Source: Oscillospiraceae bacterium (lineage in GTDB: Bacteria > Bacillota > Clostridia > Oscillospirales > WRJC01). From it: DNA of 64,000 nucleotides. The notes below the pieces were generated by a model. That model worked only from the letters and a program-made list of their open reading frames with translations, was not told the DNA's origin and made no database searches. Position numbers and translations under genes: made by a program. The DNA lies in the NCBI GenBank assembly GCA_009783265.1, contig WRHM01000001.1, positions 558,001 to 622,000 on the forward strand, written 5' to 3'. Numbering within the stretch: position 1 is the stretch's first letter; every line of letters starts with the position of its first letter. Of this stretch, positions 7,294-57,410 are shown one piece after another.

Positions 7294-8760
7294 TTATAGA
7301 TTTTCTTCTATACTTTCTGTAGGGCGCGCAGCCCCCGGCGCGCCGCCGAATACATCGTTCGGCGAATGTTTTATAAGCGATTTCGCAGTCTCCCTGTCCT
7401 CGTTGAATAAATACATACGCAGCTCTTCAAGTTTTACCGCTCCCGCGTTATATCCTTCAAGATACTGATTCCATGTCTCTGCGCTGTCCTCAAGAAGCCC
7501 GTAATTCCAGTCGAATTTTACCGAATATTCTTTTGTGCTTTTAGAGCATAAATCAAAAGCGTCCGCAATTATCCCGAATGCGTAAATAAGCTGCCCCGCG
7601 GCGACTTCTATATTTTTTCTCATAGCGTAAACAGTGGAAAACGTATCGAGGGTGCTGCGTTTTATCGCTGTAGCCGTAGCGTTTGAAACATTCATATCCG
7701 TAAGTATGCCTTTATTTACCGAAACGGCTTTTTCAAGCAGCCCGAATAAATAATCCAGCCCTTCAAAGTAAGACGCGTGCCGTATCTCCGGAGAGAATAT
7801 CTCCCAGAAAGACTGCGTGTCGATCCCGCCGCCTGACCTGAAGAGTTTATATAAACCGCTCTCAGGCAGTTTGCTGTCTTTGTCAAATAATAAATCGTCT
7901 GCGCCGATAAACGCTTTTTTGTTTTTGTATTCTTCCGGTATCTCGTTAAGCAAATCAAGAATCATTTTTATCAGTTTATCCTGACCGTAAGTTATAGGCG
8001 CGCCGTATATCGCGCTGCCGGCGGCGCAGGATTCTTTTTTGTTGTCCGACGGGCATTTTACAAAAGCGAACAGCATTTGTTCGACGTTAGTTATAATAAC
8101 GCGCTGCGGCATGTCGGCCCAGATTGTTTTAGATAACGCAATTTCTTCGTAATCTTTGTTTTTGGCCCACTTTTGAAATGGGGTGGTACTCGTAGGGCGC
8201 GACGCACCCGGCGCGCCGTAGCCGCTGACGGGTGTTTGCGCGACAATTTTGTTTTCGATTGTGTAAATATTATTGGAATCAAGCGAATGATATTCGATTC
8301 TGACATATTTCTTTTTTGCTTTCTCATCACAGAAAACATCGGCGATAAATCCCGCTTTTGTGATAATTTCACCGTGCTGTTTAATAATAAAAAATCGATT
8401 CTGCGGGATAATATCAGTATAAATCTTATTGTCATAAATATAGGGCTTTAAGATAACCCCGCCTATCCCGAACGCTCTTACCGCAATCAAATGCAGTTTA
8501 GATACGCATTTCTGCAACGCATTATCTAAAAAATCAATCTTCCCGTTTTTATTTTCCGAATTTGCGGGAACGACTTCCGCGCTTACTTCAGAGCATACGA
8601 TATTAGAGAGCTTGTTTGCAATTATCGAAATAATATTAAACTCGGTTACGTCCTCATATTTGATAACGTAACCGAGTTCTTCTGCCTGTTCAATCTCTGA
8701 TTTTTTTATTGACTCTTTCCCGAAAAGTTTTTTCAGCCGGTTTATGACGTCTGTAAACAT
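7294..8760 (-). CDS. Phage portal protein (contains repeat-derived inserts)
   Basis: Position after terminase, FGIGGVILKPYIYDNKI, TAIKRSTLDTFSTVYAMRKNIE motifs. Confidence 0.8.
   Translation of the reverse strand: MFTDVINRLKKLFGKESIKKSEIEQAEELGYVIKYEDVTEFNIISIIANKLSNIVCSEVSAEVVPANSENKNGKIDFLDNALQKCVSKLHLIAVRAFGIGGVILKPYIYDNKIYTDIIPQNRFFIIKQHGEIITKAGFIADVFCDEKAKKKYVRIEYHSLDSNNIYTIENKIVAQTPVSGYGAPGASRPTSTTPFQKWAKNKDYEEIALSKTIWADMPQRVIITNVEQMLFAFVKCPSDNKKESCAAGSAIYGAPITYGQDKLIKMILDLLNEIPEEYKNKKAFIGADDLLFDKDSKLPESGLYKLFRSGGGIDTQSFWEIFSPEIRHASYFEGLDYLFGLLEKAVSVNKGILTDMNVSNATATAIKRSTLDTFSTVYAMRKNIEVAAGQLIYAFGIIADAFDLCSKSTKEYSVKFDWNYGLLEDSAETWNQYLEGYNAGAVKLEELRMYLFNEDRETAKSLIKHSPNDVFGGAPGAARPTESIEENL
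7319..7347. repeat. Family-A repeat at 3' end of portal ORF (GGAPGAARPTE)
   Basis: gtagggcgcgcagcccccggcgcgccg. Confidence 0.85.
8166..8239. repeat. Composite: family-A repeat nested in family-B repeat inside portal gene
   Basis: cccacttttgaaatggggtggtact[cgtagggcgcgacgcacccggcgcgccg]tagccgctgacgggtgtttg. Confidence 0.85.
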
Positions 8761-18900: not shown

Positions 18901-19813
18901 CTCCTGTAGGGCGTGACGACCCGGCACGCCGTTCGTCCCCATTTATTTGTATAAGCGGCGCGCCGAGGTCGTCGCGCCCTACAGGTGCGCCGGCATTATA
19001 TTCCACACCCAGATCAAACGGCAGGCACTTGCAGGTTATATAAATATTTTCAGCCTGATTAAAAATCCTCGACAAAACGGCTTTCTGCCCGTTTGAGAAC
19101 GAATCAAACGAATCTATAAAAACATTTGCGTTATTAAAAAATTTTCGCTTTTCAAGATTTATATTTGCCTTGTCTGTATAATCTATATATTCTGTGTCGA
19201 GAAGCGAGCATAAATAACCCATTTCGTCTGAGACGTCGCGCAAAATATTATTCTTGCCCTCTTCTCCTTTGAAATTTTTTTCGTATGCCGCGTATATAAG
19301 CCCGATTTCGTTGATTTTACGCGCCGTTTCTTTATTAATATTATTAATATCCGGATCAGATGAACCCACCGTAATTTCTTGCGATGTTTTTTCGAGCATA
19401 AGAGGGGAAACAAAACCGAGTTTCATCTCATCGACTGTTTTGACTAATTTTTCGACAAATTCCATATTTGACGAGACTTTTGAATAAAAATTTAAAATCG
19501 GCTCCAAAACCCTTAGGGTTTTATTCATCACTAATTTTTTCAGCGTGGAATCGGCGTAATCATACGACATTCCCCCAGTTTTCCGCGAGACTCTGTTTGA
19601 CATTCTGTCAAAGCTCAGAACTTCGACTTTGAGATTTGCGGTATTGCCGAAACGCTCTATAATTTTGCGCTCTGTAACAAGCGTCTGCTGTTCCGGGACG
19701 ATAAGAAATATATCAAACGTGCGGTCAGGATTTTCACTGATTTTTTCTTTTATTTTAGCATATAAATATTCGCTTTTGCCGTAGCCGCTTTTCCCAAAAA
19801 TTCTGTAAACCAT
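15977..19813 (-). CDS. addB: AddB-like ATP-dependent nuclease subunit (RexB/AddB)
   Basis: MVYRIFGKSGYGKSEYL, LIVPEQQTLVTERKIIE, VLSFDRMSNRV, PD-(D/E)XK region VRIVDYKTGAKKFNLSDILAGINLQMFIYL, C-terminal Cys cluster. Confidence 0.9.
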   Translation of the reverse strand: MVYRIFGKSGYGKSEYLYAKIKEKISENPDRTFDIFLIVPEQQTLVTERKIIERFGNTANLKVEVLSFDRMSNRVSRKTGGMSYDYADSTLKKLVMNKTLRVLEPILNFYSKVSSNMEFVEKLVKTVDEMKLGFVSPLMLEKTSQEITVGSSDPDINNINKETARKINEIGLIYAAYEKNFKGEEGKNNILRDVSDEMGYLCSLLDTEYIDYTDKANINLEKRKFFNNANVFIDSFDSFSNGQKAVLSRIFNQAENIYITCKCLPFDLGVEYNAGAPVGRDDLGAPLIQINGDERRAGSSRPTGDISKRGENYEEENIFYRIKDTSEFIKNLCKDKNIGLVDYILGESKRFDNNILSYLEKNLWRNKKNLAFLSDEFKNKLEIYECEKIFDEAETAAKKILYLTREKNYKYSDIQIIAADVSSYKGILDSVFEKYNIPLFMSIRTQLSTKPLMSMLLSLFDMIIYDFRLQNIHSYIKNGLCGLSYREIDDIEIYITAWQINGIKRYLGKDWNMHPDGYVEYDETDENIKETLSKINATKRKFIGPVYNFMQNLKKFEEQTPVSGFADGGTSRTPSPTQKGASVKNITVAVIDFLEEIKTYERLAELRNEQKENGEITEAAETVQIWNILMDLLQKIVLVCGDEIVDLKRYSELFRFILNDIDIGKIPTSIDEVTALNANLMRDGDRKCTIVFGLNTDIFPESPADDDLLGDREKQILREYGLDFSFDSMQKSYDQLYYFYNAVTSASQCVILMYRKADINGEAMLPSMAVEKVRSIYPNLETYRQDEVFGDMFFNLEGKENGYIEMGITQDEILKSALENYFLQTPVSDAVAATPFQKGASGLKDGEIIIDKNLTDKLFYNLNMSSTKLDSYVNCPFSYFCKYVLGLKSESSPKMQMNDIGRFIHKILEIFMLKIRDENIEFKNISDNFIRDEAEKIIDAYLSSIIKDYEFKTDRFRYLLRRLNKIIFEIIKNLRDEFKTCDFIPADFELGVTDITNKEKEKDKPDNSIKPVEIKIPGKGSLRVTGIIDRVDIYKAGKDVYIRIVDYKTGAKKFNLSDILAGINLQMFIYLFSVWHNGQGRYGGGAGDDGGVQSSVSFADSSFQKEPLEQETGTESKPENIPAGVLYMPSRIPQYERKAKMSDSEIHEEKGKNFTRSGLFLRDEKILNAMEHNLEGRYIPIKLKSDKNINFKKSTASGVLASLEQIGKLERYVTNSLADIASELSAGKAYVLPFKGKLDSCAFCEMKRICRFEENDSNKKNSVLFSPDKVWDIIEREI
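16491..16545. repeat. Family-B palindromic repeat inside addB (GVQSSVSFADSSFQKEPLEQE)
   Basis: aggctccttttgaaaggagctgtcagcgaagctgactgaggattgca. Confidence 0.8.
17294..17345. repeat. Family-B palindromic repeat inside addB (LQTPVSDAVAATPFQKGASG)
   Basis: agcccccttttgaaagggggtggcagcgacagcgtcgctgacgggggtttg. Confidence 0.9.
18071..18140. repeat. Composite: family-A repeat nested in family-B repeat inside addB
   Basis: agccccctttt[gtgtaggggacggcgtcctcgacgtcccgcc]atcggcaaagccgctgacgggggtttg. Confidence 0.85.
18906..18982. repeat. Inverted pair of family-A repeats inside addB (REPIN-like)
   Basis: gtagggcgtgacgacccggcacgccg ... ggcgcgccgaggtcgtcgcgccctac. Confidence 0.9.
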
Positions 19814-39755: not shown

Positions 39756-39827
39756 TAGGGCGCGACTCCCTCGGCGCTCCGGGAATCCGGTTTGTTTTAA
39801 CGGCGCGCCGAGGGCGTCGCGCCCTAC
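39756..39827. repeat. Inverted pair of family-A repeats, intergenic
   Basis: tagggcgcgactccctcggcgctccg ... cggcgcgccgagggcgtcgcgccctac. Confidence 0.9.
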
Positions 39828-44595: not shown

Positions 44596-45639
44596 ATTAT
44601 AAAAAATATAAATTCAGTTATAACGGGAACAGGGGCGTATCTGCCCGGTTTTGTTCTGGATAACTCTATGTTTGAACAGATAATAGAAACAAGCGACGAA
44701 TGGATTGTTTCGAGAACAGGCATAAAAGAAAGGCGCATAGAGCAGGAAAAATATAATTATGAGATGATAGGCGAGGCATGTAAACGCGCCCTTGAAAACG
44801 CGGGGATTTCGGCAGATAAAATAGACATGATAATCGTCAGCACAGTCACTCAGGATTATAATTATCCGTCGGCGGCATGTCTTGTTCAGAATTATATAAA
44901 AGCCGGTAACGCCGTATCGTTTGATATATCGGCCGCGTGCGCGGGATTTGTGTTCGGGCTTGATATTGCCGACGCTTATATAAAATCCGGCAAGGCGAAA
45001 AATATATTAGTCGCTTCCGGGGATTTAATGAGCCGCGAGACTGATTATTCAGACAGGAGCAACTGTATTTTATTTGGCGACGGGGCAGGGGCGGCTGTTG
45101 TTTCGGCTTGTGGATATGATGATGTAGGGCGCGACGACCCCGGCGCGCCGCTGCCCGGAATTCTCGCAAGTTATATTGCGGGCGAGTGCGACGGGGAAAA
45201 GCCGCTGTTTATTAAATCGCAATTATATAAACCCAATGAAATTTTCGATAAAAACACAAAACGATTTAAGGGCAACGCTGTAAAACAACAAAATTATTTA
45301 TGGCAGAACGGGCGCGAAGTTTTAAAGTTTGTATCAAGGATTGTGCCGATAGCGTTGGACGAAGTTTTGAAAAGAGCCGGGAAAAATATAAGCGATTTGA
45401 AATATATAATTTTACATCAGGCAAACAAGAGAATAATAGATCATGTGATAGAAAAATATAATCTCGACCCTGAGAAAGTGCCGATAAATATAGATAAATA
45501 CGGCAATATGTCGAGCTGCACAGTGCCTGTATTATTACACGAGTTAAACATGGCGGGTAAATTAAAAAAAGGCGATTTGATTGCTCTTGCGGGATTTGGC
45601 TCAGGGCTTGTGTACGGCGCGGCCGTGATAAGATGGTGA
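44596..45639 (+). CDS. fabH: Beta-ketoacyl-ACP synthase III; conserved N-terminus upstream of the first ATG (44668)
   Basis: In-frame upstream INSVITGTGAYLPGFVLDN then ETSDEWIVSRTGIKERRI; SAACAGFVFGLDIADAYIKSG; ILHQANKRIIDHV. Confidence 0.93.
   Translation: MIKNINSVITGTGAYLPGFVLDNSMFEQIIETSDEWIVSRTGIKERRIEQEKYNYEMIGEACKRALENAGISADKIDMIIVSTVTQDYNYPSAACLVQNYIKAGNAVSFDISAACAGFVFGLDIADAYIKSGKAKNILVASGDLMSRETDYSDRSNCILFGDGAGAAVVSACGYDDVGRDDPGAPLPGILASYIAGECDGEKPLFIKSQLYKPNEIFDKNTKRFKGNAVKQQNYLWQNGREVLKFVSRIVPIALDEVLKRAGKNISDLKYIILHQANKRIIDHVIEKYNLDPEKVPINIDKYGNMSSCTVPVLLHELNMAGKLKKGDLIALAGFGSGLVYGAAVIRW
45124..45150. repeat. Family-A repeat inside fabH (VGRDDPGAP)
   Basis: gtagggcgcgacgaccccggcgcgccg. 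Confidence 0.9.
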
Positions 45640-46416: not shown

Positions 46417-46420
46417 TTTT

Positions 46421-46445
46421 GTAGGGGCGCGCATTGCGCGTCCGG
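46421..46445. repeat. Degenerate family-A-like repeat between fabG and transposase
   Basis: gtaggggcgcgcattgcgcgtccgg; similar at 25379-25400. Confidence 0.6.
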
Positions 46446-46497
46446 GTGATAAATAAATTGCATCATAGAATTTTATATTAGCAGGATTGATGAATAT

Positions 46498-47022
46498 ATG
46501 GAAAAGGAATTGCCGGTAAGAAAACATCCAAGATTGAAAAATTATGATTACAGCAGCAACGGGGCATATTTTATAACGATGTGCGTTGAAGGCAGACATG
46601 AGATGTTAGGGCAAATCGTAGGGCGCGACGCCCCCGGCGCGCCGTTCGTCGAATTAACGGAATACGGAAAAATTATACGCAAGGAAATCGGGGATACACA
46701 TTTACACTATAAAAATGTTATTATTGACAAATTTATAGTTATGCCAAATCATATACACATGATTATTCTCATTCAAAATGAAAATAAAATTAATGAAAAC
46801 GGCGCGCCGAGGGCGTCGCGCCCTACGAGTGCGTTAATTCCTAATGTTATCGGAATATTGAAGCGCAAAACGAATAAAAAATATGGTTTTCAAATGTGGC
46901 AGGATAGTTATCACGATCATATCATTCGTGACAGAGAAGATTATCGTATAAAATGGCAGTACATCGACACTAACCCCGCAAAATGGGCGGAGGACGATTA
47001 TTTTATCAATGAATCAAATTAA
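46498..47022 (+). CDS. RAYT/IS200-like (Y1, HUH) transposase, REP-associated type
   Basis: SNGAYFITMCVEGRHEMLG; VIMPNHIH-type motif IVMPNHIHMIILI; LKRKTNKKYGFQMWQDSYHDHIIRDREDYRIKWQYIDTNPAKW. Confidence 0.92.
   Translation: MEKELPVRKHPRLKNYDYSSNGAYFITMCVEGRHEMLGQIVGRDAPGAPFVELTEYGKIIRKEIGDTHLHYKNVIIDKFIVMPNHIHMIILIQNENKINENGAPRASRPTSALIPNVIGILKRKTNKKYGFQMWQDSYHDHIIRDREDYRIKWQYIDTNPAKWAEDDYFINESN
46618..46644. repeat. Family-A repeat inside transposase ORF (VGRDAPGAP)
   Basis: gtagggcgcgacgcccccggcgcgccg. Confidence 0.93.
46800..46826. repeat. Family-A repeat inside transposase ORF, inverted (GAPRASRPT)
   Basis: cggcgcgccgagggcgtcgcgccctac. Confidence 0.93.
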
Positions 47023-47044
47023 ACAAAAAGGAGAAAAAATACAG

Positions 47045-48289
47045 ATGAGCAGCAGAGTTGTTGTTACGGGAATGGGAATGATAACGGCCGCCGGAAAAAA
47101 CGTCGGTGAGACATGGCAAAAAGTCACAAGCGGCGAAACGGCGATAGATACTATTACAAGATTTGATATATCTGATTTTAAGGCGTCGCTTGCCGCCGAG
47201 ATAAAAGATTTTGACCCTGAGCAGTTCGTCGAGGAAAAAAAAGATGTGCGCCGACTTGACAGATATTGCCATTATTCGCTCGCCGCAGTTCACGAAGCCG
47301 TGGTTTCTTCGGGGATAGATTTTAAAAATGATAATAATCTGGATAAAACGCGCTGCGGCGTTATTTTTGGGTCTGGAGTCGGCGGTATCGAAACTCTGGA
47401 GACTGAGATCACAAAATATAACGAAAAAGGCCCGTCGAGGGTTTCGCCGCTTTATGTGCCTATGCTTATCGCTAATATGGCGGCGGGTTATATTTCTATA
47501 AAATACGGGCTTGAGGGATACGGGTTCTGTCCGGTTACGGCATGCGCGACAAGCGCGCACGCTGTCGGCGAGGCGTTCAGGGCGATAAAACACGGCTACG
47601 CCGATATTATGATCGCCGGAGGGGGCGAAGCCGCAATCACCCCAAGTTCTATCGCGGGATTTCAGAACATGACGGCTTTATCTAATTCAAGCGATAAAAA
47701 CACAGGGCTTATAGCGTTTGATAAGCGGCGCAGCGGATTTGTAATGGGCGAGGGCTCTGGAGCGTTGGTTCTGGAAAATTACGAAAATGCGAAAAAACGC
47801 GGGGCTGTTATATACGGCGAAGTAGTCGGATATTGCGCAAATTTTGACGCGTATCATATAACCGCGCCCGAACCAAACGGAAAAGGCGCGGTAAACGCGA
47901 TTATAAGCGCGTTAAAAGACGCTGGGCTTGATAAAAATCAAATAGGGTATATTAACGCACACGGCACAGGCACGCAGATAAACGACAGGACAGAGACTAC
48001 AGCGATAAAAAACGTTTACGGCAAAGACGCATATAATATCCCTGTATCTTCGACAAAAGGCGTGGTCGGTCACATGCTCGGCGCGGCGGGAGCGGTCGAG
48101 ACGATATTTTGCTTAAAGGCAATATCTGATAATTTATTGCCGCCCACGGCTAATCTGCGCGAAAGCGACCCGGACTGCGATTTGGATTATATCCCGTTAT
48201 ACGCGAGGGAAAAGAAAATAGATTACGCATTGTCTACTTCTCTCGGTTTCGGCGCGACAAACGCGGTGCTGATTTTGGGTAAAATTTAA
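47045..48289 (+). CDS. fabF: Beta-ketoacyl-ACP synthase II
   Basis: SSRVVVTGMGMITAAGKNVGETW; TACATSAHAVGEAFRAIKHGYADIMIAGG; NAHGTGTQINDRTE. Confidence 0.95.
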   Translation: MSSRVVVTGMGMITAAGKNVGETWQKVTSGETAIDTITRFDISDFKASLAAEIKDFDPEQFVEEKKDVRRLDRYCHYSLAAVHEAVVSSGIDFKNDNNLDKTRCGVIFGSGVGGIETLETEITKYNEKGPSRVSPLYVPMLIANMAAGYISIKYGLEGYGFCPVTACATSAHAVGEAFRAIKHGYADIMIAGGGEAAITPSSIAGFQNMTALSNSSDKNTGLIAFDKRRSGFVMGEGSGALVLENYENAKKRGAVIYGEVVGYCANFDAYHITAPEPNGKGAVNAIISALKDAGLDKNQIGYINAHGTGTQINDRTETTAIKNVYGKDAYNIPVSSTKGVVGHMLGAAGAVETIFCLKAISDNLLPPTANLRESDPDCDLDYIPLYAREKKIDYALSTSLGFGATNAVLILGKI

Positions 48290-48313: not shown

Positions 48314-48820
48314 ATGGCGATATTTGAAAGCAAAGACGATATATTTGAGCTTATAGATAAATTTGAAAAGAGCGCGCTGTCTGAACTGCAAATTTCTACA
48401 GGCGCGGATTTTCACATAAAACTGTCTAAATCCGGCGTTAATATTAATAATCATAAAGTGTGGGATTCTAATGACAGTCAGCCGGATATAATCCCTGATA
48501 TTTATGAAGAAGCCCCTGAAGTTTTTGAAAATATGAACATGAATATAGGGCGTGGCGATTCTGGCGCGCCGTCGCCTGAAAAAGACAATAAAATAATAAA
48601 ATCGCCGCTGGTCGGGATTTTTTATTCTTCGCCGTCGCCCGATACTGAGCCGTATGTAAAAATCGGGGATAAAATATCAAAAGGCATGGTTATATGTATA
48701 ATCGAAGCTATGAAAATCATGAACGAGATAGAGGGCGACGCAGACGGTGAAATCGCCGAGATTTTAGTAAGCAACGGCCGCCCCGTAGAATACGGCCAGC
48801 CGTTGTTCAGGTTAAAATAA
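48314..48820 (+). CDS. accB: Acetyl-CoA carboxylase biotin carboxyl carrier protein
   Basis: VICIIEAMKIMNEIEGDADGEIAEILVSNGRPVEYGQPLF. Confidence 0.95.
   Translation: MAIFESKDDIFELIDKFEKSALSELQISTGADFHIKLSKSGVNINNHKVWDSNDSQPDIIPDIYEEAPEVFENMNMNIGRGDSGAPSPEKDNKIIKSPLVGIFYSSPSPDTEPYVKIGDKISKGMVICIIEAMKIMNEIEGDADGEIAEILVSNGRPVEYGQPLFRLK
48545..48571. repeat. Family-A repeat inside accB linker (IGRGDSGAP)
   Basis: atagggcgtggcgattctggcgcgccg. Confidence 0.75.
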
Positions 48821-55816: not shown

Positions 55817-57410
55817 ATACAAATCTTTATATATAAAATGGCGGCCGAAAATATTTACGGACGTTTACGGTCAGGAGCATATCACAAAAGTCCTGCAGAA
55901 TCAGGTCGCAAATCAAAAAGTCTCGCACGCCTATCTGTTCACCGGGACGAGGGGTACAGGCAAGACTACGTGCGCCAGAATACTGGCGAAAGCCGTAAAC
56001 TGCGAAAATCCCGATAACGGCAATCCGTGCAATAAATGCGAAACATGCACGGGAATCGAGAGCGGCAGGATTATCGACGTTATAGAGATAGACGCAGCTT
56101 CAAACAACGGGGTCGAGAATATACGCGATATACGCGACGACGTAGCGTTTACCCCCGGCGGCGCGGATAAAAAAGTTTATATAATAGACGAAGTTCACAT
56201 GATGTCAACGTCGGCTTTTAACGCTTTTCTTAAAACCCTTGAAGAGCCGCCGGCGCATATAATTTTTATACTTGCTACTACTGAGATAAATAAAGTCCCC
56301 GCGACTATATTGTCAAGATGCCAGCGGCATGATTTCAAAAGAATTTCCCCGGAAATAATCGCGCAGAGATTAAATTATGTCTGCAAAGAAGAAAATATAG
56401 AAATAGAAGAAAAAGCCGTGGATTTGATTTCGAGATTATCAGGCGGGGCATTGCGCGACGCTTTGAGCATCCTCGAAACGTGTTCAACCGTAGGGCGCGG
56501 CGACCCCGGTGCGCCGGAAGATAAATCAAATAATGAAATCATAACTTTTGAATATGTTTCTAAAGTTTCGGGATATTTTGACACAGAAAAAATGGTGAGT
56601 TTATGCGTGCGCATAAAAGACGGCGACGCTGAAAACGCCCTGCGTATTTTCTGGGAAATGTATGATAATTCTTTAGATTGCAATAATTTTTGCATGTCTC
56701 TGTTGGAGATGTTCAGGAATATTGAGGTTGCGAAAATTATACAGGAGCCGCTGCAGTATATAAATTTAGAGAAAAGCGAAGCCGAAAAGATTATCGAAAT
56801 AGCGAAAGGATTTGATAGTACTGAACTTTTGAGGTGCAATACTCTTATAAGCGAAGTTATAATAAATCTGGGAAGATATACAGTGAATAAAAGAGTCGCG
56901 GTCGAAGTTATGCTGGTCGAGATGTGCATGGAAAACGTGAATAAATTTGCAGGGCGCGACGCCCCCGGCGCACCGCAGCAACCCCCGTCAACTTCGTTGA
57001 CACCCCCTTCTGAGGAGGGGGTTTCTGCCGATTTTGCCAACCCTCTGCCCCCTTTCCAGAAGGGGGTGCCGTCCGCAGACGGCGGGGGTTGGGAAACCAA
57101 ACCCCGGAGATATTTTGATAAATACGCCGATTTAATCGAGGAAGTGAGCAAAGAAAACAAGATGATAGTGCCGTATTTAAAAAGCGGGAAATGCATAATC
57201 GACGGCGCGGTGAAAAAAGTTATAATATATGTAGACAGCGAATTTAAGGCAAATATTTTAAAAGACGAAAAAAATCTCTCTGTTATACAGAATAATTTGA
57301 TTAAATTTACAGGTCGGGAATATTCGGCTGTCATCGAACTGCAAAAAACAGAAAATCCGGAAGATAACAATAAAAACAGTATAGACGATATAATAAACAG
57401 CGCGAAATAA
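55809..57410 (+). CDS. dnaX: DNA polymerase III subunit gamma/tau
   Basis: LYIKWRPKIFTDVYGQEHITKVLQNQVANQKVSHAYLFTGTRGTGKTTCARILAKAVNC. Confidence 0.97.
   Translation: MPEYKSLYIKWRPKIFTDVYGQEHITKVLQNQVANQKVSHAYLFTGTRGTGKTTCARILAKAVNCENPDNGNPCNKCETCTGIESGRIIDVIEIDAASNNGVENIRDIRDDVAFTPGGADKKVYIIDEVHMMSTSAFNAFLKTLEEPPAHIIFILATTEINKVPATILSRCQRHDFKRISPEIIAQRLNYVCKEENIEIEEKAVDLISRLSGGALRDALSILETCSTVGRGDPGAPEDKSNNEIITFEYVSKVSGYFDTEKMVSLCVRIKDGDAENALRIFWEMYDNSLDCNNFCMSLLEMFRNIEVAKIIQEPLQYINLEKSEAEKIIEIAKGFDSTELLRCNTLISEVIINLGRYTVNKRVAVEVMLVEMCMENVNKFAGRDAPGAPQQPPSTSLTPPSEEGVSADFANPLPPFQKGVPSADGGGWETKPRRYFDKYADLIEEVSKENKMIVPYLKSGKCIIDGAVKKVIIYVDSEFKANILKDEKNLSVIQNNLIKFTGREYSAVIELQKTENPEDNNKNSIDDIINSAK
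56489..56516. repeat. Family-A repeat inside dnaX (VGRGDPGAP)
   Basis: cgtagggcgcggcgaccccggtgcgccg. Confidence 0.9.
56949..57092. repeat. Composite family-A + two inverted family-B repeats inside dnaX linker
   Basis: cagggcgcgacgcccccggcgcaccg then aacccccgtcaacttcgttgacacccccttctgaggaggggg...cccccttttc-type agaagggggtgccgtccgcagacggcgggggtt. Confidence 0.93.

What the first reader, a model, noticed from the sequence alone, without database searches (positions are those of the whole stretch)
46421..47022. RAYT-like transposase inside the fab operon carries two inverted copies of family-A repeat within its own coding sequence
The Y1/HUH transposase between fabG and fabF belongs to the family that in other bacteria mobilises REP/REPIN palindromes. 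Copies at 46618-46644 and 46800-46826 are near-identical reverse complements and sit in frame in the transposase ORF, with a degenerate copy upstream at 46421. This links a plausible enzyme to family A and suggests self-invasion, or cis-marking of its own gene.
Basis: partly seen in the sequence, partly recalled or inferred. Interest (0 to 1): 0.75.

Follow-up and report, generated by a model that had tools for sequence, protein, structure and literature searches.

The report
Transposase gene carrying its own target repeats
A bacterial transposase gene sitting between two fatty-acid genes carries two inverted copies of the small DNA hairpin it probably acts on inside its own coding sequence, and dozens of related genes across the same class of bacteria do the same at the same two spots with different hairpins, so this is a built-in design and not an accident.

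Summary
The two copies at 46618-46644 (+) and 46800-46826 (-) are real, in frame and not chance. The third claimed copy is misread: 46421-46444 is an exact copy of a different 38-copy family, found at the same fabG end in a sibling genome without a RAYT there.

The gene encodes an intact-looking REP-associated tyrosine transposase (RAYT/TnpAREP, nearest to subclass 2.4). In 59 of 93 full-length homologs, mostly from the same bacterial class, the ORF holds an inverted pair of GTAG-headed hairpins above every shuffle. They sit in the same two surface loops and, in nearly all genes, the same reading frame.

Hairpin sequences differ between RAYT clades, but the two copies in one gene match each other. 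The GTAGGG codons are invariant far beyond codon usage, and stems change by compensation, so DNA hairpins, not peptides, are conserved. Cognate copies are about 10 times denser near a RAYT that carries them. Cognate REPs rarely flank these genes; they are internal.

In-frame REPs inside RAYT genes are known (Quentin 2018, subclass 2.4). The paired, two-loop, concertedly evolving form that largely replaces flanking REPs is not described in the main texts I could read. Catalysis on these hairpins is inferred, not shown.

The parts
46498..47022 (+). RAYT / TnpAREP-like Y1-HUH transposase gene, 174 aa
   Evidence: NCBIfam NF047646 E=3.5e-18, 65.9 bits, below the 80-bit cut-off; AlphaFold model matches 4er8 E=7.8e-8; His85, His87, Trp134, Gln135, Arg144, Tyr155 invariant in a 12-sequence alignment
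46618..46644 (+). In-gene REP 1 (family A), loop 1 between beta strands 38-44 and 48-53, read as VGRDAPGAP
   Evidence: folds as GTAG + 6 bp + 1x1 mismatch + 2 bp + 4-nt loop
46800..46826 (-). In-gene REP 2 (family A, inverted), loop 2 between the strand bearing NHIH and helix 113-129, read as GAPRASRPT
46750..46758 (+). HUH motif His85-Ile-His87
   Evidence: translation; invariant columns H85 and H87
46960..46962 (+). Predicted catalytic Tyr155 (QYIDTNP)
   Evidence: invariant column Y155; position equivalent to E. coli TnpAREP Y115 from own knowledge
46421..46444 (+). REP of a different family (B), exact copy, just after the fabG stop; not family A
45124..45150 (+). Family-A REP inserted in frame in fabH (VGRDDPGAP); absent from fabH of siblings G001 and G002
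48546..48572 (+). Degenerate family-A REP in accB (IGRGDSGAP); region unalignable or different in siblings
7319..7345 (+). Dispersed family-A copy
8192..8218 (+). Dispersed family-A copy
18956..18982 (-). Dispersed family-A copy, in frame in a 786-aa open frame
39801..39827 (-). Dispersed family-A copy, not in a long open frame
56490..56516 (+). Dispersed family-A copy, in frame in a 533-aa open frame
56949..56975 (+). Dispersed family-A copy, same 533-aa open frame

Best explanation
The gene is a RAYT (TnpAREP, closest to subclass 2.4) that carries its cognate REP hairpin twice, in inverted orientation, as part of its own reading frame, in two loops that tolerate extra residues. Shown: the pair is conserved in position and frame across a large clade; it is conserved as DNA hairpins and not as peptide; the two copies in a gene change together and differ between RAYT clades; the same hairpin family is dispersed in the same genome. 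Inferred: the protein binds and nicks GTAG-headed hairpins of its own family in single-stranded DNA. Because the pair is inverted, each strand of the gene offers one hairpin in the recognised orientation. Carrying the substrate inside the gene keeps enzyme and repeat family together during horizontal transfer and divergence (an internalised REPtron), and enzyme-driven or recombinational conversion keeps the two copies and the dispersed population alike.
For: 59 of 93 full-length homologs have an in-gene inverted repeat scoring above all 930 codon shuffles (maximum 14.5); arms lie at about nt 96-156 and 253-340 in nearly all of them. Loop-1 GTAG is in the same frame in 63 of 64 genes. 55 of 55 loop-1 V-G codon pairs are GTA GGG against 3.6% expected from codon use; 45 of 46 loop-2 Pro codons are CCT against 17%. 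Arms within a gene differ at 2.4 of 26 positions against 7.7 between genes and about 9 for genes under 50% identical; 24-nt class 1.1 against 6.6 of 23; none of 10,000 permutations as low. Stem covariation in loop-1 hairpins: 35 double-changed cells against 7.8 shuffled, 0 of 500. Hairpin family follows RAYT clades on a tree built without the loops. Cognate hairpins are 10 times denser in a RAYT's own stretch than in other RAYTs' stretches. The in-gene hairpin rate is 3.62 per kb against 0.088 background, while flanking hairpins within 350 nt are found on the 5' side of 8, the 3' side of 5 and both sides of 1 of 53 genes. Host genome: four RAYT loci with four different in-gene families, each dispersed (52, 19, 15, 43 copies). 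GTAG-reading residues W, Q and R (PMC6006769) are conserved.
Against: No binding or cleavage data. Family members are not independent, so p-values overstate. At least 13 changes of the paired state are needed on a poorly resolved tree. Some REP populations have no matching RAYT: family A in G001, G116, G125, G177 and G188, and other families in G005. Most homologs from outside the class lack the pair. Family A inserts into many host genes in similar frames, so entry into the RAYT gene needs no special mechanism; only its conservation does.
Confidence: 0.66

Rival explanations
1. Family A is an aggressive intragenic REP (RPE-like) that inserts in many genes; the RAYT gene was hit twice by chance in permissive loops and the pair means nothing.
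For: Most of the 52 family-A copies lie in open frames of 150 aa or more, mainly in one frame, VGRDxPGAP; fabH has the same kind of insert, absent in siblings; the loops are a hairpin tip and a disordered linker.
Against: Same two sites, orientation and frame in dozens of homologs with different hairpin families; in-gene rate 41 times the background.
Confidence: 0.1
2. The two arms pair with each other in the mRNA (27-31 bp) as a regulatory or processing structure, and that pairing explains why they match.
For: 97% complementarity over 31 nt in the window; arms match within genes.
Against: Arms of one gene differ at 10 stem pairs, over the whole set, by changes that keep each hairpin paired but break arm-to-arm pairing (for example ACAG..CTGT against ACCG..CGGT in L150); arms also match the dispersed copies.
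Confidence: 0.08
3. The REP-encoded peptides are the conserved function, for example loops that help recognise the cognate hairpin.
For: Loops change together with the hairpin family.
Against: Codons are fixed far beyond amino-acid need; encoded peptides differ widely between clades; the second loop is predicted disordered.
Confidence: 0.07
4. The in-gene hairpins mainly auto-regulate the transposase: the protein or the ribosome meets the hairpin on the mRNA and expression is damped.
For: Loop 1 gives a GTAG-headed stem on the coding strand.
Against: Loop 2 gives the reverse complement on the mRNA, and E. coli TnpAREP does not act on inverted REPs (PMC8266576); no expression data.
Confidence: 0.09

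Closest known systems
TnpAREP subclass 2.4 (Quentin et al. 2018, PMC6006769), labelled (4) in that paper's table of RAYT groups
   Same: NHIH, WQ and YIxxNP motifs; variable region after the HUH strand; GTAG REPs with G-C-rich stem foot inserted in frame inside the transposase gene, mostly between HuH and Y
   Different: A second, inverted copy at a fixed site N-terminal to HUH; both copies match each other; flanking cognate REPs are mostly absent; the hosts here are a bacterial class not stressed in that paper (Cyanobacteria and Bacteroidetes are)
REPIN / BIME and classical REPtron (RAYT flanked by inverted REPs)
   Same: Two GTAG-outward inverted REPs, cognate to a RAYT, with dispersed copies, some as close inverted pairs
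   Different: The pair lies inside the coding sequence, about 150 nt apart, enclosing the HUH-coding part, instead of flanking the gene
Intragenic REPs and Rickettsia palindromic elements (Di Nocera et al. 2013, PMC3733652)
   Same: Short palindromes inserted in frame in many genes, including fabH here
   Different: Here the transposase gene itself carries the palindromes at conserved sites
E. coli TnpAREP (PDB 4er8)
   Same: Best structural match; GTAG-reading residues W, Q and R and the HUH/Y centre are conserved
   Different: 21% identity; no in-gene REP is reported for the E. coli gene; E. coli REPs carry a bulge of two mismatches, family A one 1x1 mismatch

Membership tests
TnpAREP / RAYT | Y1 HUH fold with HUH and single catalytic Tyr in YIxxNP | tested here: met
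   His85, His87 and Tyr155 invariant; fold match 4er8 E=7.8e-8
TnpAREP / RAYT | NCBIfam NF047646 curated score cut-off | tested here: not met
   65.9 bits against 80; none of six related genomes and only one of 14 control genomes passes it, so the model seems tuned to another branch
TnpAREP / RAYT | Association with dispersed GTAG-headed palindromes in the same genome | tested here: met
TnpAREP / RAYT | Binding and nicking of cognate single-stranded REP | not testable with these tools
   needs protein
TnpAREP subclass 2.4 | NH[IFV]H, WQ, YIxNNP motifs | tested here: inconclusive
   NHIH and WQ met; YIDTNP has T for the first N
TnpAREP subclass 2.4 | REP sequences in frame within the gene between HuH and Y | tested here: met
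   46800-46826
TnpAREP subclass 2.4 | Flanked by cognate REPs | tested here: not met
   only a family-B REP lies 5', none 3' within 350 nt; general in this clade
TnpAREP subclass 2.4 | Placement in the published subclass tree | not tested
   reference sequences not available here
REPIN | Two inverted REPs moving as one unit | tested here: inconclusive
   orientation and GTAG-outward polarity fit; no mobility of the enclosed gene segment was seen or looked for systematically

The most novel reading that the evidence does not exclude
RAYTs of this clade have internalised their REPtron: the cognate hairpin pair is a permanent part of the coding sequence. It is kept alike by ongoing conversion with the genome's REP population, so that enzyme specificity and substrate evolve as one heritable unit and each transfer of the bare gene can seed a new REP family in a new host.
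Probability: 0.4. Interest if true: 0.8.

Novelty: new variant of a known kind. Interest (0 to 1): 0.62.

Why it matters
How RAYTs stay matched to their REP families, and whether they spread them, is an open question. Here dozens of enzymes each carry a built-in record of the hairpin they go with. That gives a ready list of enzyme-substrate pairs, close homologs with different hairpins for swap tests, and a gene whose hairpins can be removed by synonymous recoding.

Tried and rejected
Chance: rejected. Family-A identity of 46421: rejected. Arm-to-arm RNA duplex as the conserved unit: disfavoured by compensatory differences inside arms. Peptide as conserved unit: disfavoured by codon invariance. 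phmmer against PDB found nothing and Pfam had no hit; NCBIfam and fold search were needed. Flanks of 50 family-A copies show only a pyrimidine at -1 and +1 and no longer target motif, so no conserved CT cleavage site was identified. Literature searches found no paper on paired in-gene REPs beyond PMC6006769 and PMC3733652; supplementary figures of those papers (including Figure S10) could not be read.

Full report
Observation. The window holds a 174-aa open frame at 46498-47022 between fabG and fabF. Two 27-nt palindromes lie in it, 46618-46644 on the plus strand and 46800-46826 on the minus strand, inside a 31-nt inverted repeat that is 97% complementary. Both are read through in frame. The family has nine copies in the window with none in shuffles and 52 in the 2.59-Mb genome with none for the reversed control. 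At that density two copies in one gene of 522 bp would be rare (p about 5e-5). The claimed third copy at 46421 is not family A: 46421-46444 is an exact copy of GTAGGGGCGCGCATTGCGCGTCCG, which has 38 copies here, 89 in sibling G001 and 24 in G002. In G001 a slightly shorter version of the same element provides the fabG stop codon, with an Uma2-like gene (named from own knowledge of the sequence) and no RAYT behind it. In G002 fabG and fabF are adjacent with neither. So the RAYT gene was either gained in this gap or lost in siblings, and the upstream element does not depend on it.

What the gene is. Pfam gives no hit. NCBIfam calls it REP-associated tyrosine transposase, E=3.5e-18, below the curated cut-off. 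The AlphaFold model (mean pLDDT 77.7) matches E. coli TnpAREP bound to a REP hairpin best (4er8, E=7.8e-8) and then IS200/IS605 transposases. His85, His87, Trp134, Gln135, Arg144 and Tyr155 are invariant in a diverse alignment; W, Q and R are the residues that Quentin et al. link to GTAG recognition (PMC6006769). Loop 1 is the tip of a beta hairpin; loop 2 is a low-confidence, probably disordered linker between the HUH-bearing strand and the next helix.

What the repeats are. Family A folds as single-stranded DNA into an unpaired 5' GTAG, a 6-bp stem, one mismatch, 2 bp and a 4-nt loop, at -11.7 kcal/mol; other in-gene families fold alike or as a perfect 8-bp stem. This is the canonical REP plan (PMC3733652, PMC8266576). 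Element ends are sharp, with a pyrimidine on either side. Most family-A copies lie inside long open frames, chiefly in the frame VGRDxPGAP. fabH is an example whose insert is missing in both siblings.

The wider pattern. I collected 93 distinct full-length homologs. In 59 the open frame has an inverted repeat above every one of 930 codon shuffles. In nearly all the first arm is GTAG-headed at nt 96-156 and the second is inverted at nt 253-340. Loop 1 is in one frame in 63 of 64 genes. More than 25 different palindromes occur. On a tree built without the loop columns, palindrome families follow RAYT clades. The two copies of a gene are far more alike than copies of different genes (2.4 against 7.7 mismatches of 26; 1.1 against 6.6 of 23). 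They are constrained as DNA: GTAGGG is used in 55 of 55 cases where codon use predicts 3.6%, and CCT in 45 of 46. Stem pairs covary. Ten stem differences between the two arms of single genes keep each hairpin but break arm-to-arm pairing, so the conserved unit is the single hairpin. Homologs without inserts exist, for example L052 with the short turn KDGEM in loop 1. Others carry a hairpin in loop 2 only.

Cognate relation. Copies of a gene's own hairpins are ten times denser in its own stretch (mostly 9-20 kb) than in the stretches of other RAYTs. In the host genome four RAYT loci, two of them broken, carry four different in-gene families, each dispersed: A 52, C 19, D 15, E 43 copies. In G001 the one RAYT found carries family B twice and B has 89 copies, most of them exact. 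In the class, family A occurs in 13 of 392 genomes, 9 of which have a RAYT (p=3e-5). Exceptions exist and are listed under evidence against. Flanking REPs, the usual sign of a REPtron, are rare here: within 350 nt, 8 of 53 on the 5' side, 5 on the 3' side, 1 on both; in-gene density is 41 times the background.

Interpretation. The best reading is a RAYT that carries its cognate hairpin pair inside its reading frame. The recognised orientation is present once on each strand. E. coli TnpAREP acts on REP and not on the reverse-complement hairpin (PMC8266576), so either strand, when single, would offer one target; that step is inferred. Concerted change of the two copies fits conversion with the dispersed population or co-replacement by the enzyme; which of these is not shown. 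The alternative that family A simply hit a tolerant gene twice explains one genome but not the clade.

Known and new. In-frame REPs inside tnpAREP genes, generally between HuH and Y, are reported as a unique feature of subclass 2.4 in addition to flanking REPs (PMC6006769). New relative to the text I could read are the second fixed site before HUH, the inverted pairing, the within-gene match with clade-specific families, the DNA-level constraint and the scarcity of flanking REPs. Figure S10 of that paper was not readable here and could reduce the novelty.

Limits. The homolog set was chosen by similarity to this gene, the sequences are related, many are from metagenome assemblies, and no biochemical activity was tested.

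Noticed in passing
L034/L035 (G000:C2:45669-46186): A RAYT paralogue with family-E hairpins in both loops is broken by a frameshift at or next to its loop-2 hairpin, although family E has 43 copies in the genome, 25 of them exact.
   Followed up: partly
46417-47047 and L183, L184, L193, L194: The fabG-fabF gap is empty in sibling G002, holds an Uma2-like gene in G001 and the RAYT here; a variable site inside an otherwise conserved fatty-acid operon.
   Followed up: partly
45124-45150 and genome-wide family-A copies: Family A behaves like an intragenic, in-frame palindromic element, found in many long open frames mainly as VGRDxPGAP; fabH of siblings lacks the insert.
   Followed up: yes
G005 (same order): Holds 22 family-B-like and 9 family-C REPs (three of the latter exact) but no RAYT by two searches, with a strand bias of family C (8 to 1).
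   Followed up: no
L057:4989-5597 (Thiotrichales): A RAYT with an inverted in-gene hairpin pair, both in the loop-2 region, plus cognate hairpins upstream of the gene: possibly an intermediate between flanking and internal arrangement.
   Followed up: no
G188 and G125: Many family-A copies (34 and 23) while the RAYT found carries another hairpin; either the cognate enzyme is missing from the assembly or it was lost.
   Followed up: no
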